Assembly: GCA_022822085.1 (NCBI GenBank)
Contig: JAJECK010000116.1
Span: forward strand, 1 to 54,782
Direction of reading: 5' to 3'
Length of the DNA: 54,782 nucleotides
Source: Candidatus Poribacteria bacterium
GTDB lineage: Bacteria > Poribacteria > WGA-4E > WGA-3G
The notes below the pieces were generated by a model. The model was not told where the DNA came from. It did no database searches and was given only the letters and a program-made list of their open reading frames with translations. Position 1 is the first letter of the stretch. The number at the start of each line of letters is the position of its first letter. Made by a program: the position numbers and the translations under genes. Shown here in pieces: positions 8,460 to 46,290 of the stretch.

Positions 8460-8479
8460 CAGCAATAGGAGTTCCTCAA

Positions 8480-9253: not shown

Positions 9254-9331
9254 AGCACATTCAAAGAGAAACAGTAGTTACTAAATTCAGTCAACAATTA
9301 TCGCTACCTGTCCGGAAAAAGGCATTCCTTT

Positions 9332-10063
9332 ATGAATGCAAAAATCATGAACAGGTCAGAACTCATATATCACATCATTGCCATAGTTACTCTGGCAATA
9401 ATTATATTTCTGTTTTGGAACTTCAGTACAGATAAGCCCCATGTTGAAGGTGAAATTACCTCTGATTTGGCTGTAGACGATACTTCGTCGTTAATTGATC
9501 GGTATCTTTACAGAATGATTCCAATTTTATGTGGTGCAGGATTATTCAGTATTGTTATCGCGTTATATTTAGAAGAATGGCTAACACAAACAACATGGCA
9601 ATATAGAATTATAGAACGGTATATTGTTATTTTAGCAAAAGTACCATCACTTGTTTATGGGATATTTGCTGTTTACTTTATAGTTTTTCATTCTCAAAAG
9701 GTCTTGAATTATCCCCTATTGCTGATAGCTATCTTACTTGTGATGCCAGTTACCATTCGGTCCACACAAAAAGCAATTCAAAGTGTTGACATATCTGTCC
9801 GAGAAGCAGCTTATGCGTTGGGAGCAACAAAATTGCGGATGATTGCCGATAATGTTTTACCGAACGCATTTCCTTTGATTGTAGCTGGAATATGTACTGC
9901 AATTTCAAGAATACTCGCAATTGTTGCATTAATTGTCATAATTAGTAATTGGATAAATTCATCTAATATTTTTACTATCCCCAAAAGTGCAGTTGTGTTA
10001 ATATCCTCCGCAGTGATAGCAAGTATATTTTCAAGTATACTTGATTACAAACAGGTAACTTAG
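9332..10063 (+). CDS. Second, divergent PstA/PstC-like permease
   Basis: A 243-residue membrane protein with about six hydrophobic segments and a clear EAA loop (REAAYALGATKLRMIADNVLP, near residue 157), so an ABC permease contacting an ATPase. It is shorter and more divergent than the PstC and PstA upstream, with an added region after the first segment (about 33-62) that is acidic and polar. It lies between PstB-like ATPases 2 and 3. It could be the membrane half of a second transporter or a dispensable relic of a duplicated pst set. Its substrate cannot be read from sequence. Confidence 0.75.
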   Translation: MNAKIMNRSELIYHIIAIVTLAIIIFLFWNFSTDKPHVEGEITSDLAVDDTSSLIDRYLYRMIPILCGAGLFSIVIALYLEEWLTQTTWQYRIIERYIVILAKVPSLVYGIFAVYFIVFHSQKVLNYPLLLIAILLVMPVTIRSTQKAIQSVDISVREAAYALGATKLRMIADNVLPNAFPLIVAGICTAISRILAIVALIVIISNWINSSNIFTIPKSAVVLISSAVIASIFSSILDYKQVT

Positions 10064-10089
10064 GACACATTTAACTCAATGGATAAATT

Positions 10090-10221
10090 CAGGACTTACG
10101 CATTTTCTCTTAAAGTCCCCTTGATAAGGGGGATTTAGGGGGTTAAAAAGACTAAAAACACTGAAATATCGCACCATTTAACCCCCCTACCCCCTTATCA
10201 AGGGGGAATGCGTAAGTCCTG
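10090..10221 (+). mobile_element. Family A miniature element, copy 2
   Basis: A 132-bp element with ends CAGGACTTACGCA and TGCGTAAGTCCTG. It is flanked on both sides by AAATT (10085-10089 and 10222-10226), a clean 5-bp target duplication. Its interior pairs as one long hairpin of G-rich and C-rich arms. It ends only 10 bp before the start codon of the third ATPase, so the normal ribosome-binding region there is replaced by element sequence. Confidence 0.82.
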
Positions 10222-10231
10222 AAATTGATAA

Positions 10232-11002
10232 ATGCAACATCCAATAAATGCCCCCATTTTGTATATAGACGATTTGAATGTATGGTACGGTAAAAACCAT
10301 GTGCTGAAAAATTTAACATTTGATGTTTTTCCAAGACAGGTGACTTCATTTATTGGACCTTCAAAATGTGGTAAAACAGCATTAGTCCGTTGCTTTAATA
10401 GGTTAAATGATTTGAAATCAGACTTTAGATATACTGGTAAGATTCAGTTTAATGGAGTTGATCTATATGCATCCAATGTTAATGTCACTGAAATTGCCCG
10501 AAAGATAGGGATGGTATTTCATAAACCGATTCCTTTCCGTAAATCTATCTACGATAATGTTGCTTATACTGCGCGACTTCGCGGAATAAAACAATCCCTT
10601 CAACTTGATACTATTGTTGAAGATTGTCTGAGAGCGGTGCAGCTTTGGGATGAAGTCCGTAATGACCTTCACGCATATCCAGAAATACTAACTATCGGAC
10701 AACAGCAACAGCTCTGCATTGCACGTGCATTAGCAGGTAATCCAGAGATATTGATATTCGACGAACCGTGTGAACAACTGGATGCTACAGAGACCCCTAA
10801 ACTGGAAGCGACTGTGCAGAGACTCAAAAGCCAGTATTCGCTTATATTCGTTACTAACAAGCGAAGGCAAGCTGCCCGTGTGTCTGATATTGCTGGATTT
10901 CTATATAACGGTGAATTGATAGAATTTGGACAGACTGAACATTTATTTACAAACCCAAAAAACAAACTTACCGAAGACTATGTAACAGGTCGTTTGGGAT
11001 AA
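10232..11002 (+). CDS. PstB-like ATPase 3: signature, Q- and H-loops all altered
   Basis: A 256-residue PstB homologue with Walker A GPSKCGKTA (42-50) and Walker B ILIFDEP (E178). The Q-loop glutamine is histidine (VFHKPIP, H97), the signature is LTIGQQQQ (153-160) and the H-loop histidine is asparagine (VTNKRRQ, N209). The C-terminus still reads like PstB (EDYVTGRLG). It may bind but scarcely hydrolyse ATP. No good ribosome site precedes the ATG, because a miniature element ends 10 bp upstream. It could be a structural partner for the second permease or a gene on its way out. Confidence 0.75.
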   Translation: MQHPINAPILYIDDLNVWYGKNHVLKNLTFDVFPRQVTSFIGPSKCGKTALVRCFNRLNDLKSDFRYTGKIQFNGVDLYASNVNVTEIARKIGMVFHKPIPFRKSIYDNVAYTARLRGIKQSLQLDTIVEDCLRAVQLWDEVRNDLHAYPEILTIGQQQQLCIARALAGNPEILIFDEPCEQLDATETPKLEATVQRLKSQYSLIFVTNKRRQAARVSDIAGFLYNGELIEFGQTEHLFTNPKNKLTEDYVTGRLG

Positions 11003-11014
11003 TTCGTAACGTTA

Positions 11015-11146
11015 TAGGACTTACGCATTTTCTCTTAAAGTCCCCTTGATAAGGGGGATTTAGGGGGTTAAAAAGACTAAGAACACTGAAATATCGCACC
11101 ATTTAACCCCCTTACCCCCTTATCAAGGGGGAATGCGTAAGTCCTG
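11015..11146 (+). mobile_element. Family A miniature element, copy 3
   Basis: A 132-bp element nearly identical to copy 2, with ends TAGGACTTACGCA and TGCGTAAGTCCTG. It is flanked by CGTTA at 11010-11014 and 11147-11151, a second independent example of a 5-bp target duplication. It separates ATPase 3 from phoU. The close similarity of copies 2 and 3 argues for recent movement. Confidence 0.82.
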
Positions 11147-11163
11147 CGTTATAGGATATACGG

Positions 11164-11823
11164 ATGCAACATTACTTGGAATCAGAACTCAAAGCACTGC
11201 AGCACCAACTGCTTAAAATGGGTGGAATTGCAGAAAATATGTTGCGGGATGCTGTCCAATCTGTTCTCAATCGGGATGGGGAATTAGCACAACGTGTTAT
11301 CGTAGTTGATGATACGGTGGACAAATTGGAAAATGAAATTGAAGCGCAATGTATCCAACTCATCGCGCGTCATCAACCTGTTGCTTTTGAGCTACGTTAC
11401 CTGACTATGACAATGAAGATCAATAGGAACATTGAAAGGATGGCGGATAAATGTGTTTCTATTGCCAGACGGACTATTGAGTTATTAGAATATCCACCGC
11501 TGCAACCATTTGTTGATCTTCAATCTGTAACCCGTCTTATACAAGGGATGGTGAAGGATTCACTTGACGCATTGGTGAACAGAAATGCGGAACTTGCACG
11601 AGAACTCCGTGCACGTGATAGCAAAGTCAATACATTCTACGAACAGATGTACCGTGATCTCTGCTCTCTATTGTCAGATCAACCCCAGCATATCCAATCC
11701 GGTCTATGCCATCTACTTATTTTCCGTCATTTGGAACGGGTTGGAGATTTAGCTGTGAATATCGGTGAAGAGGTATATTACCTCGTAGAAGGTGAAGTTA
11801 TTCGTCATACGGAGATAGCATAA
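11164..11823 (+). CDS. phoU: Phosphate transport regulator PhoU
   Basis: A 219-residue, all-helical PhoU protein with two three-helix repeats and their metal-binding motifs, e.g. ERMADKCVSIARR near residue 95 and ERVGDLAVNIGEEVYYLVEG near 192. PhoU links the Pst transporter to the phosphate sensor kinase and damps uptake when phosphate is plentiful. It ends the pst array, as usual. TAGGAT lies 6-11 nt before the ATG and derives partly from the target-duplication sequence of the miniature element. No PhoR/PhoB genes are in the window. Confidence 0.92.
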   Translation: MQHYLESELKALQHQLLKMGGIAENMLRDAVQSVLNRDGELAQRVIVVDDTVDKLENEIEAQCIQLIARHQPVAFELRYLTMTMKINRNIERMADKCVSIARRTIELLEYPPLQPFVDLQSVTRLIQGMVKDSLDALVNRNAELARELRARDSKVNTFYEQMYRDLCSLLSDQPQHIQSGLCHLLIFRHLERVGDLAVNIGEEVYYLVEGEVIRHTEIA

Positions 11824-11864
11824 TACCCCGCTTTCCACGCTGCAATATGTCCGCCAATAGATTC

Positions 11865-13097
11865 CTACCTCTGGTCCATTGGGTAAAAATGAACATCTCG
11901 TTGCGGGAATGGAATTTTGATATCGCATTCCTTAAACTTCTCCCAAATCATAAAATGAAGGTCGCTTGCGACATCAAAACGTGCAAAGGAGTCTGGAATC
12001 CACGCTAACAATTCAAAATCTAAGGACGAGTCACCAAAATTGGTAAACCGAACGAAAGGGACGGTAACGTCTTCCATCTCTAATGTCGGTTCTTTAATCA
12101 CCTTAGGATGTGCGTTTGCTACTTCAAGTAGTGCATTTTTCACGAGGTCTACGTTAGAATTAAACGACACATTTACTTCAACGCGGACGCGAAAATAATT
12201 GTTATAGTGTGTAAGGTTATGCACCGGCTCAGTAATCAATTGTGAATTTGGAACAATAATCTCCTTCTCATCAACTGCTATAATGACTGTGGATCGGAGA
12301 TTGATACTACTTACTCTACCAAATATGTTAACATCCATGATTTCAACTAAATCCCCAATTTTGATAGGCTTTTCAAACATTAGAATAAATCCTGATATTA
12401 AATTTGATACCACATTCTGCAAACCGAAACCGATACCGATACTCAACCCGCCAAATATTAACGCAATGCTCGTGAGACTAATACCGAGTGTGTTAAATGT
12501 AATAAGGATGCCGATAGTGATAAGACTGAAGTGTAAGATGCGAAGAAGGATGAACTGTGTATGTCTCTCAATTTGAAATTCCTGTAAAACCTGCCGCCTA
12601 ATTACATATTGTGCGTACTTGGAGAGAATGAACATTCCGAAGATAATGGCAAATCCATAAAATAGACTTACTAATGTTAATCTTCGCGCACTGTCATCAA
12701 CAACTTCCGGTTTTCTGCCGAGAAGTGTTTGAAAGAAAGATGAAATACCGGTTGTTTCTTCTGTCTGTTGTTTAGAGGGTTGAAAAAGTTCTGTGATTGG
12801 ATAATGTAAAATCTGTCCAAAGAGTCCTGTACTAATTCTCGCCACATTTAATGCTACACCTATTCCAACAATCAAGATGATTAGGAATAGGATTGCGATA
12901 ATTCGGTTCTTAATGTTTTGCGAAATCTGTAACCGATTTAGAAATTTGCGTAACCAACGACGTAAGAATTCACCAATAACTAACGTCAACACCAAGATAC
13001 CGATAAATACGATGATCTGCCAGACTTTCACCTCATTGTCTAAGGTGAGAGCCTTTTTGTCCAGAAAAACCCATATTTGTTCAAAAAGTTCGAGCAT
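11865..13097 (-). CDS. Small-conductance mechanosensitive channel (MscS family)
   Basis: A membrane protein of about 410 residues. The MscS pore helix and beta domain are plain: GLSIGIGFGLQNVVSNLISG, then FEKPIKIGDLVEI, INLRSTVI and the IIVPNSQLI segment. Additional N-terminal spans make it longer than the 286-residue E. coli MscS. It releases solutes on osmotic downshift. I place the start at the ATG at 13097 because AGGG lies 9 nt upstream; a TTG at 13106 directly abuts that site. It converges on phoU with a 41-nt gap. Confidence 0.88.
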   Translation of the reverse strand: MLELFEQIWVFLDKKALTLDNEVKVWQIIVFIGILVLTLVIGEFLRRWLRKFLNRLQISQNIKNRIIAILFLIILIVGIGVALNVARISTGLFGQILHYPITELFQPSKQQTEETTGISSFFQTLLGRKPEVVDDSARRLTLVSLFYGFAIIFGMFILSKYAQYVIRRQVLQEFQIERHTQFILLRILHFSLITIGILITFNTLGISLTSIALIFGGLSIGIGFGLQNVVSNLISGFILMFEKPIKIGDLVEIMDVNIFGRVSSINLRSTVIIAVDEKEIIVPNSQLITEPVHNLTHYNNYFRVRVEVNVSFNSNVDLVKNALLEVANAHPKVIKEPTLEMEDVTVPFVRFTNFGDSSLDFELLAWIPDSFARFDVASDLHFMIWEKFKECDIKIPFPQRDVHFYPMDQR

Positions 13098-13133
13098 CTT
13101 AGCCAACCCTATCTAAATAGGTACAGCACAACA

Positions 13134-15446
13134 TCAATCAATAGCAATCTGTTTTATTGAATGAACGAATAAGACATCATTGACACCTTGGTAGCGTTGC
13201 AGGACTTCAGCAAAGTCATGGGAATTAATATCTTCTGCGGTTAGACCTACGATAACTAAGTCTGCTTGTGCAGACCTTTGTGCGACATCTTCCTCTAATC
13301 CTTCCTGACTATCATAAGAAACAGAAGTTACATTCTGCATAGAAATTGGCAGTCTTCCCTCTTTGATAAATGTAGAGAGTTTATCCGCTTCCAACTCAGC
13401 ATCCCAAGAACCAGAACATGCAAACAGGCGTATCTTTGCCTTTTTCCATTCAGGGTGTCCAACCAAAATATATGCAAGTAGTAGCATCATGGGGACATTA
13501 CTGATATTGTCATCTGTTACCCATATATGAATTGATGATCTATAACCAAATCGGTATTTCGTTGAACGAAGTACAAGTACATCAAATAGAGAATCTACAG
13601 CAAGTTGAGAACCGAGCATGACTTCATCTATTTCATCGGGGTTTTCTTTATCAAATTCAAGTAGGATAGAGTTGTTTGAATAGCCAGAGATGCCGGGCAT
13701 CTGTAATACTTGTGCTAAAGCAAGTTGGAATGTAGGACATATAAGAGAATCGACAAAGATACCTGCTCCACTTGCCTCTGTCTGTTCTATAAGCGACTGA
13801 ACATGAATACGAGCAGATAATTCTTCTTGTATAGAGTAATCACCTGGGAAAAATTGTATAAAATGTCCAAATCCTTGTCTATGGCATATCCAACGTAGCA
13901 GATCAAAATGTCCGAGTCGTCGATCCCCGAATTGTGTTATAGCGACGATTGCTGGCCGCCAATCACTTTCATCTGCGGTCGCTCTGTTTTTTTGTAACGT
14001 AGTTTGCAACCACCGGGTTAATTGGAACATTGTGCCTTGGAAGATTCCCGACATACCTCGTTGTTCTTGATGTCCGCGTCTAAGTCCGATATAAATTGCA
14101 AGTATGAGTATAATTGATATCATTGCAAATAATAGGTCTATCTGAATCATCATCAACCCACACATAACGAAACCTAACAGTGAGACATACCAACGTGAAT
14201 TGAATGTTGGCCGATAGGATGGGTTTCCTGCAAAGTGTTCAAGGAACGAGACAACACAGAGAGCCCCGTAAGTTACCAAGAAGAACATAGTGAGTATTTG
14301 TGCAATGAAGTTTAATTCACCAATTGCAACAAACACTATTGCAATTACACCGGAAACAAAAGTTGCAGGTATGGGTTCTTGGGTTTTGCCGACCCCAAAT
14401 TTCATGAGTCGGTTTAATCCAGGAATAGGTAAAACGTTGTCTCGCGCAAGTGCCTGCAGTGTTCTTGGTGCGACCATAATAGACCCCAGCGCGGATGATA
14501 GTGATGCAGCCCCCAAACCGATAAAAATAGCAGGTCCCCAAGCAGATATTTTCGCCATAATGAATGTATCATTTGCTAACCTATCAGGCAATGCACTTTG
14601 ACAAAGTTTGAATGCCACAAGAATATAGATAACCATACCAGCAAGCGTTGCACTGATTGTTCCGAGCGGTATACTTCTTTGAGGGTTCTTGAGATCGCCT
14701 GACAGGCCTAATCCTGCTATCATTCCAGTAAAAGCGGGAAAACAGATAGCAAAAACTTTGCCGAATCCATCACCACCTTCTATACCTTCTGTGATATTTA
14801 GAGTTTCAGGACGAAATCGTTGTAATTCGCCATCAATAGTGATAAATTCCTCAGGTCTCCCAAGAAAAAATGTAGAAATTGATACTGCAAGAATGGCACA
14901 GATTAACCATAACATCGATACGCCTAAATTCGCGCCTCTTGTCAACATAATTATGATAAGTACAAGCGTGCTTGGGACACTGATCCACCGCGGATCAATT
15001 ATCCACCTGAAATCTGGGTATTGTTTACCTAACATCTCCAGTACAGGTTCAAAAGCATCTGCAAATGCGACCATGTAAAACGCGATTGAAATTGCCTGTG
15101 AGAGATATAATGCTATTCCTATAGTACCACCGATACTTGTTCCGAAGGATCGACTAACGATATAGTATGCGCCACCACCGGCAACGCGCCTATTCGTTGC
15201 TACTTCAGAGACAGCGAGGACTGTCGGTATGGTAACAAGATGTCCAAGTACTATGATTGCGAGGCTCTTCAAAAAACCTACGTGTCCCACAGCATAACCG
15301 AAACGTAAGAAGAGAATTGCCCCAAGAATTGTACTTATAGATGCAAGAAAGACAGGGGCAGTTCCAAATCCGTGCCCATGTCCTTCATCAGCGAAATTGC
15401 TATGACCAGCCCCTGATTGGTTTTGTTGTCTGAATTTAGAAAACAT
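13134..15446 (-). CDS. SLC12-type cation-chloride cotransporter
   Basis: A 770-residue transporter of the amino acid-polyamine-cation superfamily, most like Na-K-Cl cotransporters. It has a short His/Gly-rich N-terminus, then about twelve membrane spans (residues about 28-470) opening with GTAPVFLASISTILGAILFLRFGYAVG and containing RVAGGGAYYIVSRSFG. A soluble C-terminal half (about 480-770) resembles the cytosolic domain of SLC12 carriers. It probably moves ions or amino acids with cations. An AAGGAT site precedes the ATG. With the MscS and K+ channels nearby, it makes this stretch rich in ion transport. Confidence 0.82.
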   Translation of the reverse strand: MFSKFRQQNQSGAGHSNFADEGHGHGFGTAPVFLASISTILGAILFLRFGYAVGHVGFLKSLAIIVLGHLVTIPTVLAVSEVATNRRVAGGGAYYIVSRSFGTSIGGTIGIALYLSQAISIAFYMVAFADAFEPVLEMLGKQYPDFRWIIDPRWISVPSTLVLIIIMLTRGANLGVSMLWLICAILAVSISTFFLGRPEEFITIDGELQRFRPETLNITEGIEGGDGFGKVFAICFPAFTGMIAGLGLSGDLKNPQRSIPLGTISATLAGMVIYILVAFKLCQSALPDRLANDTFIMAKISAWGPAIFIGLGAASLSSALGSIMVAPRTLQALARDNVLPIPGLNRLMKFGVGKTQEPIPATFVSGVIAIVFVAIGELNFIAQILTMFFLVTYGALCVVSFLEHFAGNPSYRPTFNSRWYVSLLGFVMCGLMMIQIDLLFAMISIILILAIYIGLRRGHQEQRGMSGIFQGTMFQLTRWLQTTLQKNRATADESDWRPAIVAITQFGDRRLGHFDLLRWICHRQGFGHFIQFFPGDYSIQEELSARIHVQSLIEQTEASGAGIFVDSLICPTFQLALAQVLQMPGISGYSNNSILLEFDKENPDEIDEVMLGSQLAVDSLFDVLVLRSTKYRFGYRSSIHIWVTDDNISNVPMMLLLAYILVGHPEWKKAKIRLFACSGSWDAELEADKLSTFIKEGRLPISMQNVTSVSYDSQEGLEEDVAQRSAQADLVIVGLTAEDINSHDFAEVLQRYQGVNDVLFVHSIKQIAID

Positions 15447-29280: not shown

Positions 29281-30921
29281 TTGCCGAAAAAGAAAACCTC
29301 AACAGATTCCTCCCAAACCACACTCCTCCTGGAAACCGAAAACGAAGAACAATTAGATTTACCTAAACTTGAAACATGGCTGTGGGATGCCGCTTGTGTG
29401 ATACGCGGCGCAACCGACGCACCAAAATTCAAAGATTTCATCTTACCGCTGATCTTCTACAAACGACTCTCCGATGTATTTGATGACGAATTTGAAAAAC
29501 ACGTTGAAGAATTCGGAAATGAGGAAATTGCCAGAAAGATTACTGAAGCAGACCATGCGGATGCACTTGAAAAGGATCGCGACGACCCGATTGTTCGGTT
29601 TTATATTCCACAAGAATACAGTTGGGAAGCACTTCGTAACCATCCCGCTGACGGTAATCTGGGACAGTTTGTTACCGATGCAATGCGTGAGGTTGCGCGT
29701 GCTAACCCTCGGCTACAAGGTGTGCTGAATGTAGAAGATTTTAACGAACGTCAGAGCGGACAACGACTTATTGACGATGATCGCCTCGAAAAATTGATTG
29801 AGGTTATAAGTCAACATCGGCTTGGACTTGAAGATGCGGAACCAGATATCCTCGGACGGGCTTACGAATATCTGTTGCGGAAGTTCGCCGAAGGACAGGG
29901 ACAAAGCGCAGGTGAGTTCTACACGCCGAAAGAGGTCGGAGCGTTAATGGCACGTCTTATTAACCCTGAACCCTATACCACGATATACGATCCTGCGTGC
30001 GGTTCTGGCGGTTTGCTTATCAAAGGAAAACTTCAATTTGAACAGACACATTCAGATCAAGAAAAAAGCCAAGCACCAAATATTTATGGACAGGAATTAA
30101 CCCCAACAACCTACGCAATGGCAAAGATGAACGCCTTTCTGCACGACTTTATCAGCGCGGATATTCAGATAGGCGATACCTTCCGCAATCCCCGTTTCGT
30201 GGCTGATAATTCAAAACTCCAAAGGTTTGACTATGTAATTGCTAATCCGATGTGGAATCAGAAGGAATATGACGATGACTTTTACGAAAATGATAATTGG
30301 AACCGATTCTCGGACGGAACCCCACCAAGTTCCTCAGCAGATTGGGCATGGGTACAACACATGCTTGCCTCTCTAAAAGATAATGGACGCGCAGCGATTG
30401 TCCTTGACACTGGTGCTGTCTCCCGCGGTTCCGGTAGCAAACACACCGACCGCGAACGTGATATCCGCAAAAAATTCGTTGAAAAAGACCTAATTGAAGG
30501 CGTGGTCCTGCTACCCGAAAACCTGTTTTATAACACAACCGCACCGGGCATTATATTGCTACTGAACCGCAGCAAACCCGAGGAACGCAAAACACAATTC
30601 CTGCTTATCAATCTCTCACAGCATTTTGAGAAGGGAAAACCGAAAAACATCCTAACTGATGAAGGAATTACTGCAGCAACAGAGGTCTATGAAGCATGGG
30701 AATCGCGTGAAAAGCTAAGCAGCGTCATCACACTTGAAGATGCACAGAAAACAGATTACAACCTCAGTCCCTCCCAGTTTGTAGATGTCGGAGACAAAGT
30801 TGAGCACCGTCCAGTGAATGAAATATTAGCAGACCTAACAGAAGCACGCATCGCCCGCGAAAAAGCAGATAACGCATTGGAAGATGTGTTAGCGCAGCTT
30901 GGATTAAATGAAAGGCATTAG
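29281..30921 (+). CDS. hsdM: Type I restriction-modification DNA methyltransferase HsdM
   Basis: A 546-residue N6-adenine methyltransferase subunit. The N-terminal HsdM helical domain (LETWLWDAACVIRGATDAPKFKDFILPLIFYKRLSDVFDDEF) precedes the methylase fold with the S-adenosylmethionine motif YDPACGSGGLL (near 236). The catalytic motif is ANPMW (near 321), where NPPF or NPPY is more usual. With HsdS it methylates the host's recognition sites. TTG start, with AAGGAG 8 nt upstream. The last 180 bases recur, decayed, at 35773-35936 and 37112-37242. Its partners hsdS and hsdR are 7.7 and 12.4 kb downstream, separated by other genes. Confidence 0.93.
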   Translation: MPKKKTSTDSSQTTLLLETENEEQLDLPKLETWLWDAACVIRGATDAPKFKDFILPLIFYKRLSDVFDDEFEKHVEEFGNEEIARKITEADHADALEKDRDDPIVRFYIPQEYSWEALRNHPADGNLGQFVTDAMREVARANPRLQGVLNVEDFNERQSGQRLIDDDRLEKLIEVISQHRLGLEDAEPDILGRAYEYLLRKFAEGQGQSAGEFYTPKEVGALMARLINPEPYTTIYDPACGSGGLLIKGKLQFEQTHSDQEKSQAPNIYGQELTPTTYAMAKMNAFLHDFISADIQIGDTFRNPRFVADNSKLQRFDYVIANPMWNQKEYDDDFYENDNWNRFSDGTPPSSSADWAWVQHMLASLKDNGRAAIVLDTGAVSRGSGSKHTDRERDIRKKFVEKDLIEGVVLLPENLFYNTTAPGIILLLNRSKPEERKTQFLLINLSQHFEKGKPKNILTDEGITAATEVYEAWESREKLSSVITLEDAQKTDYNLSPSQFVDVGDKVEHRPVNEILADLTEARIAREKADNALEDVLAQLGLNERH

Positions 30922-30976: not shown

Positions 30977-33900
30977 ATGACAATACTCGATTTAGTCTTC
31001 ACAGCCTATAATATTATAGGCACTGGATTTTCTATTGCTGGTGGTATCAACCACGCCATACAACATCTTTGCGAAACTACAGCAGAAGATCTTTTCAAAA
31101 AATCTTTTGATAAGGTAGTTAAGCAATACGCGTCTGACTTCGCGGATCAAACTGACCCAAAAACAGTTGAAGTTGATTCTAATTTACTTGATAAAGTTAT
31201 TACTTCACTTAAAGATGTTGATGAAGTCCAATTCGCACAATTATATGAAAGTGAGAAAATCGCAAAAATCACAACACTTTTTCAGAACTGTATTATCGTT
31301 CCCAACCATCAATTGCCCAACATGGATTTTGAACGAAGAATTCGTCCAATTATTGAGAGAGTGATAATTGATTTTTATGCACAACTTCCATTCAATCAGG
31401 GAGCATTCAATCAAATTGTCCTTGAATTTATACAAAAAAACACTACAAATCAAGAGGCCACTCAATCTACACTAACGGAGTTTATCAGAGAAATTGAACA
31501 GGTGCAGTTGGAAGTTAGTGACCGTTTAACGCAAGATCTCCAAGCCATAAAAGATGATACCGAAAAAATTAAGGATGATAATAAGGAGCTTAAGCAAACG
31601 ACGGGTGCGATTTTAGATGAAGTACGCCGCATTAACACACCAAACAATGATTTAATAAAAACAGCAGTCGCAAGAGAACATCATGCAGAAATAGACAATG
31701 CTCGAAACTTTCTCAAAAGTCACAAACCTAAAACTTCTCTTGAGTTATTAGAAACCCTGAAGAAACGAACATGGAAAGATGCTTCGGATGATCTAAAATT
31801 TAGTATTCTCACTAATATGGCAGCTGCTCAATTTGCCCTAAATAACGAACAAGATGCTGCAAAGTTGTTACTTCAGGCATTTCAATACGATTCTGAAGAC
31901 GAAAAAGCATTATCTAACCGTGCTTTGGCTCACCTCTTATTGGGAGAAACGGAATATGCTGCAGACTACGCAAAACAGACACTGGAAAAGAATCCTACAA
32001 ATACGGATGCTTATGTAATTCTCATTGGAATTTCTGAAGAGAAAGAAACACTTGATGAAATAATTGCTAAAGTTCCTGACTATTTGCAAGATTCCCTACA
32101 AATTGCTTACGCTATCAGCGAATTAGCAAAGCAACGTGAGAATTTTGATGCTGCTAAAAGATGGGGTGAAATCATGGTAGACCAGGGAAACGCTCCTGAT
32201 TTCAAGGCTGCTTTCGCAACTATCCTGATTAACCAAGTATTAGAAGATAATCTTGCTGTAGGTACTAGTCAACTCTATAAGGCACAAAAGGAACAATTAC
32301 AACGGGCAATAGGATTTCTTACTGAAGCGTGGGATTGTGTTTCCAATACAGAATTAAAAGATTATAGAGTAGATTGGATCATTAACAGAGGAATGGCACA
32401 TTTTCACCTTGGCGAGTTGATAGAAGCAAAAGAAGATTTTGATACTGCCTTAGAAATTGAAGACTCAAATCCAAGTCTGATCAAAAACCGTGCGTTTTTA
32501 GCTTTTGAGTGTGGAGATATAGCGGAAGCGATTGAATTTATAGAATCAATCCAATCTGCCCCCGAAGTGCCTGAAGCACCTATTATACTTGCTAATTTTC
32601 TCTTAGCAGATAAACGGTTAGATGAGTCTATAACAATACTTAATGATTTTTTGCAGACAGATTTACCACCAGAACTTCAAGAAAAAGCAAGCCGTTTGCT
32701 CATTGATGTTTATATTACTGATAAACGTTTTGATGATGCATTAGAAATATCAATAGCGATGCGCGAGTCAACACCAAAGAGTATACCAAATCTTGTTGAC
32801 GCTGCTTGCATTTTTAGCGCAGATCAAAAACGAGATGAAGCAATTTCTCTACTCAAAGAAGCATACGACTATGTTCAGGATGGTGAGGAATTTCTTGATA
32901 TTGTGGAATTGGCTGACCAACTCTACAGCCATAAACAATTTAAAGAAGCTGCAACACTTTATGAAAAACTTGCCGACACAAATCAGAACTCCCAATTGAC
33001 ACAATGGTTAGTGCAAAGTTACTATAATTCTGGTGAAATTGCAAAAGCACTTAAGATATGTCAGAAACTTCGTGAGAAATATGGACCACTTGAAAACATT
33101 TCTGTGATGGAAGTGATGATTCATGAAGAATATGGTGATATGAACCAAGCCGAAACGGTATGTAAAGAATATTTAACAAAATTTCCTACTGATTATGATA
33201 TGCGAATTCGTCTCGGAATGATTCTAATTCGATCTTCTAAAGAAACTGAAGTTGATAATGTGTTAGATAGTTTTTCTGAAATCAAAGACTTTTCATACCT
33301 AAATGATCTTTCTTTGGAAGGATGCTTTGAATTAGCCCTATTACATCAAATGAGATTTCAGCCGGAAAAAGCACTGGAGATAATGTATGAAGTGCGTAGA
33401 AAACATTTTGATGATCCCAATGCCCATCTTTTATATGTCAAGACCTTCCTTTCAGTTGAAAAAGAAATTCCTGAGGTGCTAAACCCTACTCAAGTTGAAA
33501 AAGATACAGCCGTCAAGATCAGCATTTCTGACGAAGACCAATGGTATATCATAGAAAAACGTGTAGATGCAGATATTAAACGCGACGAACGTGATGTGAA
33601 TGACCCTTTCGCTCAACAATTAACCGGGAAAAACATAAAAGACGAGGTGGGTTTAGGGGAGAAAATCCTCGGACCAAAGACTGGAAAGATCGTTGATATC
33701 AAGAGTAAATTTTCTTATGCCCATCAAGAGAGTTTTCGTAAATACGAACATCTATTTCCTTTAGACCAGGGCATGGATAATATGAAAATAGATGATTCAG
33801 ATGACATCGATGATAAAGAAAGATTTCAACAAATGTTTGAAATGATTGATAGGAGACAAGATAAAATAAATGAAATTGAAAAACTATATAAGGAAGAGAA

Positions 33901-35362
33901 CCTGACAATCGGGACTTTTTCAAGATTAGTTGGTAGCAATAGTTTAGATACATGGGGCACCCTCATGGGTAACCTTGACTTAGGGATTAGGTGTGGTATC
34001 GGTGACCTTGACGACAGAAACAGGTTACTTAACCTACTTAATGACTCCAACCCCAAACTGGTTGTAGATATAATTTCTCTAATCACTTTACACAGTTTGG
34101 ATGCTGCGGATATTGTGGTCAGAGCATTCGGAAAATTATGCGTTGCTCAATCGACTATTGATGAATTACAGAGCATTATCATTGAAAGAGAGGGAATGTG
34201 GTCTAAACGCGAGGGAATGACAGTTGGTAAAAAAGGAAATCGGTATGTAAAACAAATTATCAGTCCTGAGGAAATGAAGCAGGGAATAGAATATTTAAAA
34301 GACATTATTGACTGGATTAGGGAGAACTGTGAAGTTGGCAAAGCCACCGCTGGGTCAGAGATGAACCAATTACGCAGGAGAGAACTCAATGACATGCTGC
34401 AACCGCATTTCCTTGATACTGTCCTTCTTGCAAGCCAACCAGGGCACCTACTTTTTTCGGATGATGGTCGACTCAGACTTTATGCAAAAACAAGCCTCAA
34501 TAGCGATGCTGGCACAAACTTTCAAATTGACGGTGTGTGGACACAAGTTTTATTGGAACACTGTGTTATGCAAAATCTCCTTGATAAATCTGATTACGAT
34601 GAGATGACAATAAAATTAGTTTGTTCACATTACTATCACACGCAATTTGATGCCGATTTGTTAATGGAAGTGGCTAAACTTTCAAATTGGAAGCTCTCTG
34701 AGCCTTACAACAGTTTTGTACTTGCTTTAGGTAGAGAACGAATGCATGGACATTCGGCATTAGACGTGTGCGTTGATTTTCTCTTTAAACTTTGGGAGGA
34801 ATCAATTACTTTCAGACAAAGAGAATTCTTGACGTTGGGTTTATTAACTGGACTTACTTATGGACGAAATGCTGACACAGTATTGAACCGACTTGAATAT
34901 CTAATTCAAAATAAGCATAGACTTTTTTTGCCCGTTGAAAACAGTATTCTCAGACAAATCCGTAATTTTCAACAGATCTATCCTCTTAAAGATAATTTCA
35001 TGTTTTTGGCAGAAAATGATATTCGTCTTAAAGGAACACGTGTAGGTATAGAAACTATCCTATACGAATATATTGACAATAGTAGACCGCCAGAAGTAAT
35101 CGCTGATCACTACTATACACCCACACTGGAACAGATTTACGCAACGATCCTATATTATCTTCAAAATCAAGAAGAAGTTGGTACATATTTGGAGGATCAT
35201 CTGGAATACTGCCGAACGGCCCGGGAGGAATACGAGAAAGATCCGCCACCCGGAGTTGTTCGCCTACGTAAACTTATAGCAGAAAGTAAAAATGTCTCCA
35301 ATAATTCGCAACATGACTCAGCATGCACACCACAATCTCCATCTAAAAACGAACAGGAATAG
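30977..35362 (+). CDS. Giant TPR protein with GreA/B-C-like and PIN nuclease domains
   Basis: A 1461-residue protein. The N-terminus (1-230) has a short hydrophobic start, a helical region and a coiled coil (about 175-225). Residues about 230-840 are degenerate TPR-type helical repeats. Residues about 850-930 (DQWYIIEKRV to GPKTGKIVDIKSKFSY) resemble the C-terminal fold of GreA/GreB. Residues about 1020-1200 look like a PIN ribonuclease: VVDIISLITLHSL, then QSTIDELQ, then LLFSDDGRLRLYA supply the acidic residues in order. This matches the TPR-GreABC-PIN architecture associated with conflict systems; I infer an RNA- or transcription-directed defence effector. It lies 55 nt after hsdM, and the next gene overlaps its stop. 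Confidence 0.72.
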   Translation: MTILDLVFTAYNIIGTGFSIAGGINHAIQHLCETTAEDLFKKSFDKVVKQYASDFADQTDPKTVEVDSNLLDKVITSLKDVDEVQFAQLYESEKIAKITTLFQNCIIVPNHQLPNMDFERRIRPIIERVIIDFYAQLPFNQGAFNQIVLEFIQKNTTNQEATQSTLTEFIREIEQVQLEVSDRLTQDLQAIKDDTEKIKDDNKELKQTTGAILDEVRRINTPNNDLIKTAVAREHHAEIDNARNFLKSHKPKTSLELLETLKKRTWKDASDDLKFSILTNMAAAQFALNNEQDAAKLLLQAFQYDSEDEKALSNRALAHLLLGETEYAADYAKQTLEKNPTNTDAYVILIGISEEKETLDEIIAKVPDYLQDSLQIAYAISELAKQRENFDAAKRWGEIMVDQGNAPDFKAAFATILINQVLEDNLAVGTSQLYKAQKEQLQRAIGFLTEAWDCVSNTELKDYRVDWIINRGMAHFHLGELIEAKEDFDTALEIEDSNPSLIKNRAFLAFECGDIAEAIEFIESIQSAPEVPEAPIILANFLLADKRLDESITILNDFLQTDLPPELQEKASRLLIDVYITDKRFDDALEISIAMRESTPKSIPNLVDAACIFSADQKRDEAISLLKEAYDYVQDGEEFLDIVELADQLYSHKQFKEAATLYEKLADTNQNSQLTQWLVQSYYNSGEIAKALKICQKLREKYGPLENISVMEVMIHEEYGDMNQAETVCKEYLTKFPTDYDMRIRLGMILIRSSKETEVDNVLDSFSEIKDFSYLNDLSLEGCFELALLHQMRFQPEKALEIMYEVRRKHFDDPNAHLLYVKTFLSVEKEIPEVLNPTQVEKDTAVKISISDEDQWYIIEKRVDADIKRDERDVNDPFAQQLTGKNIKDEVGLGEKILGPKTGKIVDIKSKFSYAHQESFRKYEHLFPLDQGMDNMKIDDSDDIDDKERFQQMFEMIDRRQDKINEIEKLYKEENLTIGTFSRLVGSNSLDTWGTLMGNLDLGIRCGIGDLDDRNRLLNLLNDSNPKLVVDIISLITLHSLDAADIVVRAFGKLCVAQSTIDELQSIIIEREGMWSKREGMTVGKKGNRYVKQIISPEEMKQGIEYLKDIIDWIRENCEVGKATAGSEMNQLRRRELNDMLQPHFLDTVLLASQPGHLLFSDDGRLRLYAKTSLNSDAGTNFQIDGVWTQVLLEHCVMQNLLDKSDYDEMTIKLVCSHYYHTQFDADLLMEVAKLSNWKLSEPYNSFVLALGRERMHGHSALDVCVDFLFKLWEESITFRQREFLTLGLLTGLTYGRNADTVLNRLEYLIQNKHRLFLPVENSILRQIRNFQQIYPLKDNFMFLAENDIRLKGTRVGIETILYEYIDNSRPPEVIADHYYTPTLEQIYATILYYLQNQEEVGTYLEDHLEYCRTAREEYEKDPPPGVVRLRKLIAESKNVSNNSQHDSACTPQSPSKNEQE

Positions 35363-35721: not shown

Positions 35722-35772
35722 CAATGAACCGACTCCGTTCAATCTGCTTCATTCGCGAAAAGTTGAAACATT

Positions 35773-35936
35773 GAAAATGCACAGAAAACGGATTACAACC
35801 TCAGTCCCTCCCAGTTTGTAGGTGTCAATGCCGCAGTTGTACACCGTCCCGTAAATGAGATATTAGCAGACTTAACAGAAGTACGTATCGTTCGCGAAAA
35901 GTAGATAACGCATTGGAAGATGTGTTAGCGCAGTTT
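35773..35936 (+). pseudogene. Remnant 1 of the hsdM 3' end
   Basis: This stretch repeats the last part of hsdM (from about 30739): GAAAATGCACAGAAAACGG onward, with the codons for DYNLSPSQFV, HRPVNEILADLTE and NALEDVLAQ still readable. A 2-nt deletion in the codons for EKADN creates a stop, and the end has drifted to CAGTTTAAA. It has no start and no methylase domain, so it is a tail fragment, not a gene. It lies directly after the DUF5615 gene. Confidence 0.85.
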
Positions 35937-37111: not shown

Positions 37112-37242
37112 GTAGATGTGGTGACAAGGTAGTACACCGTCTAGTGAATGAAATATTAGCGGACCTAACAGAAGCACGTATTGCTCGCGAAAAAGCGGAT
37201 AACGCATTGGAAGATGTGTTAGCGCAGCTTGGTTTACAGTAA
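37112..37242 (+). pseudogene. Remnant 2 of the hsdM 3' end
   Basis: A second copy of the hsdM tail, more intact than remnant 1. After a 1-nt deletion near 37120 it reads VHRLVNEILADLTEARIAREKADNALEDVLAQLGLQ and stops at TAA 37240-37242. The only differences from hsdM over this part are a few substitutions and the very end (GLQ instead of GLNERH). It follows the Rpn gene and precedes the small membrane protein. Confidence 0.87.
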
Positions 37243-38274: not shown

Positions 38275-38310
38275 TAATAGGAGAGTGAAATGTAATAGGA
38301 GAGTGAAATG
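38275..38310 (+). repeat. Doubled ribosome site and start codon (18-bp tandem repeat)
   Basis: TAATAGGAGAGTGAAATG occurs at 38275-38292 and exactly again at 38293-38310. Each unit holds an AGGAGAG ribosome site and an ATG. The first ATG is followed at once by TAA, giving a minimal start-stop; the second starts the 93-residue gene. The first site could stall or preload ribosomes, or simply be a slippage scar. Confidence 0.85.
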
Positions 38311-38589
38311 AAAGCTAAATTTACTTTTACGCCTCAAAGCGATTTTATAAACTTTGTTGATAGTTTTGGTTATGATGATGTCAAACTCGATGAACTTAAA
38401 TCTAAACTCAAATCACTTGAAGTATATACTAATTCATATTCAAGCCTACTTCAGATTAACGACGACCTTACCACAGTTCATAAAGTACGCGGTGAAGAGT
38501 ATAAGAAAATTGAGTTAGAAATTACGAAAATTTTATGCAGTAAAAATCCCAAGCTTTATTTTGAAAAATGGCTAGAATTTAATGGCTGA
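38308..38589 (+). CDS. Small protein of unknown function, coupled to hsdS
   Basis: A 93-residue, charged, mostly helical protein (KLDELKSKLKSLEVY, KVRGEEYKKIELEITKIL) with no motif I recognise. It has a strong AGGAGAG site, and its stop overlaps the hsdS start by 8 nt, so the two are translationally coupled. Possible roles include a restriction accessory or antitoxin-like factor; nothing in the sequence decides. Confidence 0.6.
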   Translation: MKAKFTFTPQSDFINFVDSFGYDDVKLDELKSKLKSLEVYTNSYSSLLQINDDLTTVHKVRGEEYKKIELEITKILCSKNPKLYFEKWLEFNG

Positions 38590-39901
38590 TATTTCTCAAA
38601 ACCCCTCAGATATCAATAAACAGACAGAGGTTATCGAGATACTTGAGAGTTGGAAGACTATACGATTTGGAGAAGCAGTAACATTTACAAAGAAGCCGAG
38701 GGATTTACGATATTCAGAATATAATAAAATTCCGTTTGTGCCGATGGAATTGATTCCAATTGCCAAATTATCTTCTGAAGAATTCATTCTCAAAACGAAC
38801 GATGAACTAAAAAGCGGCACCTATTTTGAACCTGGGGACATTCTACTACCTAAAATCACACCATCCTTTGAAAATGGGAAACAGTGCATCATTAAGGAGT
38901 TGCCTACGCCATTTGGTATTGCAACAACCGAGGTCATTCCAATTCGAGAAGTGGAAGGCATCAGCGATATATCCTATCTTTTTTATTTCCTATTGCTCTC
39001 TAATGTTCGCACTTCGCTTGCTGGAAAGATGCAAGGGACAACTGGTCGACAGCGATTAAGTAAAAACGCGCTTGTCAACTTGCAGATTCCCCTACCCCCA
39101 CTCCCCGAACAACGCGCCATCGCCTACACCTTACAAACAATCCAAGAAGCAAAGTTCACCCGCCAACGCGAAATCGCATTAGAACGAGAACGCAAAGCAG
39201 GGTTGATGGATTATCTCTTTTCACACGGCACGAAAGGCGAACCCCGCAAGCAAACCGAAATTGGCGAGATTCCTGAGAGTTGGGAGACAAAACGTTTGGG
39301 GGAAGTGGTTACATTTACAAAGAAACCGAGAGACTTACGATATTCAGAATATAATGAAATTCCGTTTGTACCGATGGAATTAATTCCGATTGCCAAACTA
39401 TTCTCTCAAGAATTCATGCTAAAAACGAATGACCAACTAAAAAGCGGTACCTATTTTGAGACTGGAGATATCTTGCTACCTAAAATTACACCCTCTTTTG
39501 AGAATGGAAAACAGTGTATCATAACGGAAATGCCAACGCCATTTGGTATTGCAACAACTGAGGTAATTCCAATTCGGGAAATAGAAGGCGTTACCGATAT
39601 ATCCTATCTTTTCTATTATCTATTACTTCCTAATGTTCGTACTTCACTTGCGAGTAAAATGGACGGTTCAACAGGTCGACAGCGTTTAAGAAAAGAAGCA
39701 CTTGTTAACTTGGAAATTCCGTTACCCTCCCTTCCCGAACAACGCGCCATTGCCAATGTATTTCGAGCAATTGATGAAAAAACAGCAGCCCTTGAAAAAG
39801 AAGTTGAACATTTAGATGAACTATTTCACGCCATGCTTGAAGAACTCATGACAGGGCAGCGGTCTGCTGTACCGCTAATTGATACTGAGATGAACGTGTG
39901 A
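38582..39901 (+). CDS. hsdS: Type I restriction specificity subunit HsdS with two near-identical TRDs
   Basis: A 439-residue HsdS. Two target-recognition domains (about 22-175 and 228-385) are separated and followed by the helical spacers (LPEQRAIAYTLQTIQEAKFTRQREIALERERKAGLMDYLFSHGT and LPEQRAIANVFRAIDEKTAALEKEVEHLDELFHAMLEELMTGQ). The TRDs are almost the same protein: both read TFTKKPRDLRYSEYN.IPFVPMELIPIAKL, LLPKITPSFENGKQCII and PTPFGIATTEVIPIRE. Usually the two differ and read two unrelated half-sites. Here the pair predicts a symmetric, palindromic target. DNA identity between halves is also high, with many silent changes. Confidence 0.92.
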   Translation: MADISQNPSDINKQTEVIEILESWKTIRFGEAVTFTKKPRDLRYSEYNKIPFVPMELIPIAKLSSEEFILKTNDELKSGTYFEPGDILLPKITPSFENGKQCIIKELPTPFGIATTEVIPIREVEGISDISYLFYFLLLSNVRTSLAGKMQGTTGRQRLSKNALVNLQIPLPPLPEQRAIAYTLQTIQEAKFTRQREIALERERKAGLMDYLFSHGTKGEPRKQTEIGEIPESWETKRLGEVVTFTKKPRDLRYSEYNEIPFVPMELIPIAKLFSQEFMLKTNDQLKSGTYFETGDILLPKITPSFENGKQCIITEMPTPFGIATTEVIPIREIEGVTDISYLFYYLLLPNVRTSLASKMDGSTGRQRLRKEALVNLEIPLPSLPEQRAIANVFRAIDEKTAALEKEVEHLDELFHAMLEELMTGQRSAVPLIDTEMNV

Positions 39902-43368: not shown

Positions 43369-46290
43369 ATGTCTGAACGTTCAGCAGTCCAAGAACCGAT
43401 GCTTGAATATGCCGATGAAATCGGGTGGCAGCGAATTTCGCCATCAGAAGCCATGCGCATGCGTGGTGGCAATACCGCCGCGCGCTATTTTACTGATGTG
43501 TTACAAGCGCAACTCTTAAAACTCAACAAGGGTATCATAGACGGCTCCAACTGTGATGACGTGATGCGGAAGCTCGGTTTACTCAAATCAACACTTGAAG
43601 GTAACCAGATAGCACTATCTTGGATGCGTGGTGAACAGTCAACTTTTGTTCCAAGCGAAAACCGAGAACTCAATGTCACACTTATTGATTTTGAGAACCC
43701 CGACAATAACCTATTCCATGTCACCGATGAATGGGAACAGAAAGGTGTTGTCCACACCAACCGCGCCGATGTGGTCTTTCTAATAAACGGCATACCAATT
43801 GCAGTAGTGGAAACAAAATCCGCCCACAAACGGGACGGATTAGCACTCGGTGTTGATCAGATTCGCCGTTACCATCGCGAAACGCCTGAAATGTTCACCA
43901 CTGCACAACTCTATGTTGTCACGCATCTACGAGACCTTCTCTATAGCGTGACGTGGAACACCAACCGCAAAAATATCTTCAATTGGAAAACAGACGAAGT
44001 TTCCTGTCCACCTGATAAGGGGGATTTAGGGGGTTGGGACGTTAGTGGGGTAAACTATGAACAGAAGGTAAAGACATTTTTCGAGCGCGAACGTATGCTG
44101 CAAGAATTGCAGCGGTCTATTATTTTCCAGAGCAGAGACGACCAACTCACTAAAGTTGTGCTGCGTCAACACCAGACGCGTACAGTGGAAAAAGTGATTG
44201 ATCGGGTTAACGATCCGAACAAAACGCGCGGGCTTGTTTGGCATACGCAAGGCAGCGGCAAAACGCTCACTATGATAACAATTGCCTCACGACTCCTGCG
44301 CGGTGGGGAACAAGCGGAAAAGCTTACCGTACTAATGATTGTTGACAGGAATGAACTGGAAAGCCAACTCTTTAGAAATATCAACGCTTACGGCATCACA
44401 ACGCTTGAAGTCGCACAAAGCAAGGAGGACTTAGAAAGGATTTTAGCGTCCGATCACCGCGGTTTGATCGTGTCCATGATTCACAAGTTTGATAAGAGAC
44501 CCGCAAACCTTAACACAGGAAAAAACGTTATCGTCCTGATTGACGAAGCACACAGAACGACAGGTGGGGATTTCGGAAATTACTTGATGGCTGCCCTGCC
44601 AAAGGCAACCTATATCGGATTTACCGGCACCCCGATTGATAACCTTTCTAAAGGGGAAGGCACTTTCAAAATATTCGGCAAAGACGATGAACAGGGATAT
44701 CTTGATAAATATGGTATCGCCGAATCTATTGAAGATGGCACAACTTTAAGGTTAAACTATGCCCTTGCACCATCTGGATTACGGGTGGAGCCAGAGATAT
44801 TAGATCAGAAATTTCTAAGTCTGGTAGAAGCGGAAGGTGTTAGCGACCCCGATGAACTCAACGCAATCCTCGACCAAGCTGTCAAACTAAAAGAGATGAT
44901 GAAAGCATCTAACAGGATTGAGGCAATTGCTAAGTTCGTCGCTAAAGACTTCAAGGAAAGAATTGAACCGATGGGATTCAAGGCGTTTCTGGTCGGAGTA
45001 GACCGTGAGGCGTGCGCCCTTTACAAAGAAGAATTGGATAAGCACCTACCACCAGAATATTCGGAAGTCGTCTATTCACATAACAATCAGGATAACGAGT
45101 TAATGAAAAAATATCATCATTCGGAGGAGCAGGAAAAGGAGGTCCGTAAGAATTTTATTGACAAAAAATCGCAACCGAAAATCCTGATTGTAACCCAAAA
45201 ATTATTAACTGGATTTGATGCGCCGATCCTTTACTGCATGTATCTTGACAAACCGATGCGGGATCATGTGTTGTTACAGGCAATTGCACGTGTCAATAGA
45301 CCGTATGAAGATGACGATGGATTGGTAAAACCCGTAGGGTTCGTAGTAGATTTTGTCGGTATCTTTGAGAAATTGGAGAAAGCACTCGCCTTCGATTCTG
45401 ACGAAGTGGAGAGCGTCCTTCAAAACATTGACGAACTCAAAGAAAGATTTGCAGAGATGATACGCGAAGACGCACAGCAATATCTACCTTTCGCCGAAGG
45501 CTCGGACGATAAAGCAATAGAACGTGCAATTGAATATTTTGCGGATAAGGAGGTCCGAGAAACTTTTTTCACCTTCTTCAAACACTTACAGAATCTCTAT
45601 AACATCCTTTCACCTGATCCTTTCTTACACCCATTTTTAGAGGATTATCAAGCACTTGCATCGCTATATAGATTAATTTATAACGCAAATTCTGACAATA
45701 TTCCTGTTGATAAAGAATTGACAACTAAGACACAAGAACTGTTACAAGCGCACACGGAAGGCAATTTAGTTGAGTTGCCTGATGAAATTTATGAATTGAA
45801 CGAAACCACTTTGAAGGAACTAAACCAGAGCGATGTCTCTGATACGGTTAAAGTGATGAATTTGCGGAAAGCGTTGCGGCAAACAGTAATCAAGGAAGGT
45901 GAATCAAAACCGTTTCTTATCCCAATCGGTGAACGCGCGGAAGCAGCCATAGAAACCTATGACAATCGTCAGTTAGGAACAAAAGATGCATTAACTGAGT
46001 TCCTGAAGTTAGCTGAAGAAGTTTCACGCGCTGAAAGAGAACAAAATCAGGCAGAATTAGGTGATAACGCTTTTGCTGTCTATACAGTTCTGAGAAATGT
46101 TAGAGATGATGTTACACCCGAACAAGCACAAGCTGTCAATCAAATTTTTGAGAAATACCCTGACCATCAGTGGGACGAACACCAAGCAAAAGAATTACGC
46201 AGTATGCTCTATAAAACGTTAAGCCCAACAGTTGGGACAAAAGATCTTATTGAAACAACAAACAAATTGCTAAAGTTGAAACGTGTATGA
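43369..46290 (+). CDS. hsdR: Type I restriction endonuclease subunit HsdR
   Basis: A 973-residue HsdR. The N-terminal nuclease has the D...ExK site: NRADVVFLINGIPIAVVETKSAHK (ETK near 147). The helicase core follows with WHTQGSGKTLTM (near 291), VLIDEAHRTTGGDFG (near 390), GFTGTP and the motif VI region QAIARVNRPY, then a helical C-terminus that docks on the methylase. It translocates DNA and cuts unmodified foreign DNA. Between NIFNWK and NYEQKVKTFFERERML there is an extra SCPPDKGDLGGWD stretch encoded partly by family A element sequence (44013-44035). Its stop overlaps the next start as ATGA. Confidence 0.94.
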   Translation: MSERSAVQEPMLEYADEIGWQRISPSEAMRMRGGNTAARYFTDVLQAQLLKLNKGIIDGSNCDDVMRKLGLLKSTLEGNQIALSWMRGEQSTFVPSENRELNVTLIDFENPDNNLFHVTDEWEQKGVVHTNRADVVFLINGIPIAVVETKSAHKRDGLALGVDQIRRYHRETPEMFTTAQLYVVTHLRDLLYSVTWNTNRKNIFNWKTDEVSCPPDKGDLGGWDVSGVNYEQKVKTFFERERMLQELQRSIIFQSRDDQLTKVVLRQHQTRTVEKVIDRVNDPNKTRGLVWHTQGSGKTLTMITIASRLLRGGEQAEKLTVLMIVDRNELESQLFRNINAYGITTLEVAQSKEDLERILASDHRGLIVSMIHKFDKRPANLNTGKNVIVLIDEAHRTTGGDFGNYLMAALPKATYIGFTGTPIDNLSKGEGTFKIFGKDDEQGYLDKYGIAESIEDGTTLRLNYALAPSGLRVEPEILDQKFLSLVEAEGVSDPDELNAILDQAVKLKEMMKASNRIEAIAKFVAKDFKERIEPMGFKAFLVGVDREACALYKEELDKHLPPEYSEVVYSHNNQDNELMKKYHHSEEQEKEVRKNFIDKKSQPKILIVTQKLLTGFDAPILYCMYLDKPMRDHVLLQAIARVNRPYEDDDGLVKPVGFVVDFVGIFEKLEKALAFDSDEVESVLQNIDELKERFAEMIREDAQQYLPFAEGSDDKAIERAIEYFADKEVRETFFTFFKHLQNLYNILSPDPFLHPFLEDYQALASLYRLIYNANSDNIPVDKELTTKTQELLQAHTEGNLVELPDEIYELNETTLKELNQSDVSDTVKVMNLRKALRQTVIKEGESKPFLIPIGERAEAAIETYDNRQLGTKDALTEFLKLAEEVSRAEREQNQAELGDNAFAVYTVLRNVRDDVTPEQAQAVNQIFEKYPDHQWDEHQAKELRSMLYKTLSPTVGTKDLIETTNKLLKLKRV
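44013..44035 (+). repeat. Family A element fragment inside hsdR
   Basis: Twenty-three consecutive bases (TGATAAGGGGGATTTAGG followed by GGGTT) match the left arm of the 132-bp elements at 10090 and 11015 exactly. They are in frame and encode DKGDLGG in an HsdR loop. The flanking bases CC on the left also match the family partly. Confidence 0.8.

What the first reader, a model, noticed from the sequence alone, without database searches (positions are those of the whole stretch)
38582..39901. HsdS with two nearly identical recognition domains: predicted palindromic target
Type I specificity subunits normally carry two different TRDs and read an asymmetric split site. Here both TRDs share nearly all residues over about 150 positions. 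Each half should read the same half-site in opposite orientation, giving a symmetric site of the form N-half, spacer, inverted half. Silent differences at DNA level show the duplication is not brand new, so identity of the protein seems to be maintained. It also may allow a half-size HsdS to work as a dimer.
Basis: partly seen in the sequence, partly recalled or inferred. Interest (0 to 1): 0.74.

Follow-up and report, generated by a model that had tools for sequence, protein, structure and literature searches.

The report
Specificity subunit with doubled recognition domain
A sponge-symbiont (Poribacteria) defence enzyme carries nearly the same DNA-reading domain twice, so it probably recognises a mirror-image site; this kind of thing is already known elsewhere, but relatives with the same domain in the first slot, the second slot, both, or alone on a half-size protein make it a useful natural test set.

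Summary
Confirmed: the 439-aa HsdS at 38582-39901 carries two TRDs that are 85% identical in protein (136/160 core residues) and 83% in DNA. It sits in a type I R-M locus with intact-looking hsdM and hsdR in a Poribacteria MAG. The two conserved helices have equal length, so a site of the form half-site, spacer, inverted half-site is the natural prediction. This principle is already shown experimentally: H. pylori JHP1422 with identical TRD2/TRD3 methylates AAGN5CTT, and NgoAV, EcoR124I and EcoDXXI half-subunits read palindromes.

First, the halves are not an in-situ duplication kept alike: TRD1 is nearest to position-2 and half-size TRDs of other genomes, TRD2 to another genome's TRD2, and pairing the window's two TRDs is rejected (AU p=0.0003). 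dN/dS (0.093) is ordinary for the family (median 0.108). The gene looks assembled by recombination (domain movement). Second, half-size HsdS with this TRD really exist, one as the only S visible in a complete hsdM-S-hsdR operon.

Doubling recurs: 6 of 128 HsdS examined (3 of 79 in a survey not selected by TRD), in at least four TRD types. The methylation motif is untested.

The parts
38582..39901 (+). hsdS, type I specificity subunit with two near-identical TRDs (439 aa)
38618..38653 (+). N-terminal flank KQTEVIEILESW, of the kind otherwise found in front of TRD2 (5' end of the moved segment)
   Evidence: DNA homology begins at 38618; upstream BLAST hits beginning there are position-2 flanks, best L008 85.5% over 62 nt; most position-1 TRDs begin xFPEHW/xLPxHW
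38645..39124 (+). TRD1 core (residues 22-181)
   Evidence: 85.0% aa / 82.7% nt to TRD2; 92.5/86.9 to L008 TRD2
39101..39226 (+). central conserved helix CR1 (model helix 174-215), position-1 type
   Evidence: model; same length as CR2 (PxLxEQ to LF/LMTG 40 residues) in all scaffold members measured
39275..39754 (+). TRD2 core (residues 232-391)
   Evidence: 95.6% aa / 91.5% nt to L006 TRD2
39731..39850 (+). C-terminal conserved helix CR2 (model helix 384-423)
29281..30921 (+). hsdM (HsdM_N + N6_Mtase)
43369..46290 (+). hsdR (HSDR_N, ResIII/SWI2_SNF2, T1R_D3)
38308..38589 (+). 93-aa orphan ORF whose stop overlaps the hsdS start by 8 nt (possible translational coupling)
   Evidence: no relative in 84 other genomes of the phylum

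Best explanation
A type I R-M specificity subunit whose two slots hold two alleles of one TRD family. Recombination put a position-2-type TRD (nearest: other genomes' TRD2 and half-size HsdS) into the first slot of a gene that has a TRD of the same family in the second. Because the tandem TRDs face opposite ways on equal-length antiparallel helices, HsdM2HsdS should methylate, and with HsdR restrict, a palindromic bipartite site X-Nk-X'. Shown here: the doubling, the equal helices, the non-sister origin, the same TRD in position 1, in position 2 and in half-size proteins. Inferred: activity, same half-site for both TRDs, palindromic methylation.
For: Internal identity 85% over the whole TRD core. 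AF2 model has two TRDs and two long helices (pLDDT 74.5, pTM 0.70, 28-row alignment) and matches HsdS structures 1yf2, 3okg, 5ybb. CR1 and CR2 isometric. Intact-looking hsdM and hsdR in the locus. TRD1+TRD2 as sisters rejected, AU p=0.0003; TRD1 nearest L008 TRD2 and half-size L013/L062; TRD2 sister of L006 TRD2 with 100/100 support. 22 of 24 core differences lie at columns that vary among the other 13 family members; 87 columns are invariant in those. Precedent: JHP1422 TRD2+TRD3 identical gives AAGN5CTT (PMC3936762); half-S palindromes (PMC3874165); TRDs keep their half-site when moved between slots in H. pylori (PMC3983042).
Against: No methylation data. A few residues can alter a half-site within a TRD group in H. 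pylori, and no identity threshold was found, so 24 differences leave room for two related but unequal half-sites. hsdS is 7.7 kb from hsdM and has a rebuilt 5' end behind an orphan ORF, so expression is not assured. Parts of the TRD model have low confidence.
Confidence: 0.75

Rival explanations
1. In-situ tandem duplication of one TRD inside this gene, kept alike by selection for a palindromic site.
For: Silent differences dominate. Doubled genes in this scaffold are more frequent than random pairing of the sampled TRD types gives: 4 of 28 against 1.3 expected, p=0.016.
Against: Sister grouping rejected for the window (p=0.0003) and for L005 (p=0.0048). Window-pair dN/dS 0.093 ranks 34 of 105 family pairs, median 0.108. 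The N-terminal flank is of position-2 type. Partial gene conversion with other alleles could mask an old duplication, so it is not fully excluded.
Confidence: 0.12
2. The two TRDs have drifted to related but different half-sites (as VTAY against RTAY in H. pylori), so the site is only nearly palindromic.
For: 24 of 160 core differences; specificity changes with few residues are documented (PMC3983042).
Against: 22 of the 24 differences sit at columns that vary freely in the family and 87 columns are invariant elsewhere; dN is low (0.077).
Confidence: 0.2
3. Non-functional or poorly expressed gene: a recombination by-product whose HsdS has lost its native start and its junction with hsdM.
For: Homology to the HsdS family starts only at residue 13; upstream is an orphan ORF and 7.7 kb, mostly cargo genes, lies between hsdM and hsdS.
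Against: Full-length frame and low dN/dS; L005, the same kind of locus in another genome, also holds a doubled HsdS far behind the cargo.
Confidence: 0.1

Closest known systems
H. pylori J99 M.Hpy99XV (JHP1422/JHP1423), TRD2 and TRD3 identical (PMC3936762)
   Same: Type I S subunit with repeated TRDs; the TRD2+TRD3 construct, and TRD3 alone, methylate the palindrome AAGN5CTT
   Different: JHP1422 has three TRDs and exact identity; here two TRDs at 85% identity, in a Poribacteria MAG, motif unknown
Domain movement (DoMo) in H. pylori hsdS (PMC3077401, PMC3983042)
   Same: The same TRD found in slot 1 and slot 2 of alleles, single-TRD genes, and (in a type IIG S) the same TRD in both slots
   Different: Different phylum; here the moved segment is joined at conserved flanks (KQTE..ESW and EQRAIA) and compared between species, not strains
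NgoAV and the EcoR124I/EcoDXXI half-S homodimers (PMC3874165)
   Same: Symmetric specificity from two copies of one TRD; half-size HsdS of relatives (L013, L014, L015, L062) resemble these
   Different: There the symmetry comes from truncation; in the window both TRDs are on one full-length chain
M.BstXI S subunit (PMC3874165)
   Same: Full-length S with two similar TRDs reading the same half (CCA), symmetric site
   Different: Belongs to a type II system; here a type I hsdR is present

Membership tests
Type I R-M specificity subunit (HsdS) | Two Methylase_S TRDs, each followed by a long conserved helix | tested here: met
   Pfam PF01420 two stretches, PADLOC Specificity_I, model helices 174-215 and 384-423, HsdS folds in PDB
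Type I R-M system | hsdM and hsdR in the same locus | tested here: met
   hsdM 29281-30921, hsdR 43369-46290
S subunit with homologous (same) TRDs, palindromic specificity | TRD1 and TRD2 near-identical | tested here: met
   85.0% aa over 160 core residues
S subunit with homologous (same) TRDs, palindromic specificity | Palindromic m6A motif | not testable with these tools
   no methylation data
Domain movement (DoMo) | Same TRD family in slot 1 and slot 2 of related genes | tested here: met
   slot 1 in L009, L011, L012; slot 2 in L006, L007, L008, L010; both in window and L005
Domain movement (DoMo) | Exchange at repeated sequences flanking the TRD | tested here: inconclusive
   sharp 5' boundary at 38618 with position-2 flank and a switch to position-1 CR1 near EQRAIA; breakpoints not modelled formally
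Half-size HsdS homodimer (NgoAV-like) | Single TRD plus one helix as the only S in the operon | tested here: not met
   not met by the window gene (full length); met by relative L015, hsdM 8391-10031, half S 10028-10675, hsdR 10755-13625

The most novel reading that the evidence does not exclude
In Poribacteria, symmetric specificity is a recurrent state rather than an accident: several R-M families repeatedly reach it by putting one TRD in both slots or by shrinking HsdS to a half-size homodimer, and doubled genes in this scaffold exceed random TRD pairing (4 of 28 against 1.3, p=0.016), suggesting some advantage of symmetric sites or a mutation bias towards them.
Probability: 0.25. Interest if true: 0.55.

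Novelty: new member of a known kind. Interest (0 to 1): 0.4.

Why it matters
The same TRD occurs in one R-M scaffold in four architectures: slot 1 only, slot 2 only, both slots, and alone on a half-size S. Methylation motifs from these relatives would give the half-site once and test directly whether a fused doubled S and a half-size homodimer read the same palindrome with the same spacer. That bears on how type I S subunits gain and lose the second TRD.

Tried and rejected
In-situ duplication: rejected by tree and AU test. Selection specific to symmetry from dN/dS: the window pair is not unusual. Transfer of a known half-site from a named relative: the listed plasmid hits are about 36% identity or less and phage hits are weak, so no half-site is proposed. 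A control survey of doubled HsdS in another phylum could not be run. Promoter and terminator scans gave no excess over shuffles.

Full report
Observation. The ORF at 38582-39901 encodes a 439-aa HsdS. Its two halves align without gaps at an offset of 210 residues: 142 of 173 residues are identical, and nucleotide differences fall 22/10/67 on codon positions 1/2/3. Over the TRD core the halves share 136/160 residues (85.0%) and 82.7% of bases. This is far outside the normal range: among 128 full-length HsdS collected here, 122 have internal alignment scores of at most 215, and six stand apart at 554-832; the window gene scores 751.

What it is. hsdM (29281-30921) and hsdR (43369-46290) are in the locus and match the type I families. 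An AlphaFold2 model built on 28 HsdS of relatives (mean pLDDT 74.5, pTM 0.70) has two TRDs and two long helices, 174-215 and 384-423, and its best PDB matches are HsdS subunits 1yf2, 3okg and 5ybb. The distance from PxLxEQ to the helix end is 40 residues in both CR1 and CR2, and constant in every scaffold member where the pattern could be measured, half-size forms included. Relatives are mostly Candidatus Poribacteria MAGs; that they are sponge symbionts is my own knowledge of that group, not a tool result.

Natural series. In the same R-M scaffold this TRD occurs in slot 2 with another TRD1 (L006, L007, L008, L010), in slot 1 with another TRD2 (L009, L011, L012), in both slots (window, L005), and alone on half-size HsdS of 214-217 aa (L013, L014, L015, L062). 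L015 is a compact complete operon: hsdM 8391-10031, half-size S 10028-10675, hsdR 10755-13625. A further half-size S, L173, carries a different TRD, and its helix switches cleanly from CR1-type to CR2-type sequence, which suggests that half-size genes can arise by in-register recombination between CR1 and CR2.

Origin. TRD1 of the window is nearest to L008 TRD2 (92.5% aa) and to half-size L062 (91.2%), not to its own TRD2 (85.0%); TRD2 is nearest to L006 TRD2 (95.6%). On a codon-core tree, holding TRD1 and TRD2 of the window together is rejected (AU p=0.0003), as is the same for L005 (p=0.0048); window TRD1 with L005 TRD1 is weakly rejected (p=0.034), so the two doubled genes may have arisen separately. 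The N-terminal flank of the window's TRD1 is of the kind that precedes TRD2 in relatives; homology begins sharply at 38618, and the BLAST hits that begin there are position-2 flanks. Sequence then switches to position-1 type CR1 after EQRAIA. This is the pattern of domain movement described in H. pylori (PMC3077401; PMC3983042).

Selection. dN/dS between the window halves is 0.093; over 105 pairs of TRDs of this family in all contexts the median is 0.108. Each TRD is under ordinary purifying selection; nothing singles out the doubled pair. Of 24 core differences, 22 are at columns that vary among the other 13 members, while 87 columns are invariant there. That favours equal half-sites but does not prove it, because few residues can change a half-site.

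How common. Of 100 stretches fetched from the top of a PF01420 search of 85 genomes of the phylum, 79 gave distinct full-length HsdS, and 3 are doubled: L149, L180 and L087. With the window, L005 and L047 that makes six, in at least four TRD types. All six pairs are old or assembled from diverged alleles (dS 0.5-3.1, dN/dS 0.04-0.16). Within the window's scaffold 4 of 28 full-length genes are doubled, against 1.3 expected if TRD types were paired at random (p=0.016). The sample was partly drawn by similarity to the window and related genes are not independent, so this is a hint only.

Known precedent. Krebes et al. (PMC3936762) state that S subunits with identical TRDs recognise palindromes and show it for JHP1422 constructs (AAGN5CTT), including a single TRD acting alone. 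NgoAV (GCAN8TGC), EcoR124I and EcoDXXI half-S and M.BstXI are further cases (PMC3874165). The window gene is therefore a new member of a known kind.

Steps shown: doubling, equal helices, non-sister origin, existence of slot-1, slot-2, doubled and half-size forms, presence of hsdM and hsdR. Steps inferred: expression, activity, equal half-sites, palindromic m6A, dimerisation of half-size S.

Noticed in passing
window 35771-35936 and 37112-37236: Two extra partial copies of the 3' end of hsdM (86.8% over 167 nt, 89.7% over 126 nt) lie between hsdM and hsdS, each behind a block of other genes (TPR-GreABC-PIN + DUF5615; Rpn-like). It looks as if cargo was inserted behind hsdM with duplication of its tail. 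Similar tail fragments sit just before hsdS in L027 (9860-9973) and upstream of it in L033 (8566-8679).
   Followed up: partly
window 30977-35362: 1461-aa TPR protein with a PIN-TPR-GreABC domain directly behind hsdM; homologues lie upstream of hsdS in L005, L013 and L062 too. No PADLOC match.
   Followed up: partly
window 38308-38589: 93-aa ORF overlapping the hsdS start by 8 nt; no relative in 84 other Poribacteria genomes.
   Followed up: yes
L149, L180, L087, L047: Other doubled HsdS with unrelated TRDs in Poribacteria (internal identity 57-77% over 190-210 residues); L087 is in a compact hsdM-S-R order.
   Followed up: partly
L173 1485-2132: Half-size HsdS with a hybrid CR1/CR2 helix, a likely recombination product.
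   Followed up: partly
L005 4279-10034: Between DUF5615 and hsdS, the slot that holds an Rpn-like gene in the window, L005 has what looks like a C5-cytosine methyltransferase and a 1456-aa NTPase-like protein: variable cargo slot (names from reading the sequence, not searched).
   Followed up: no
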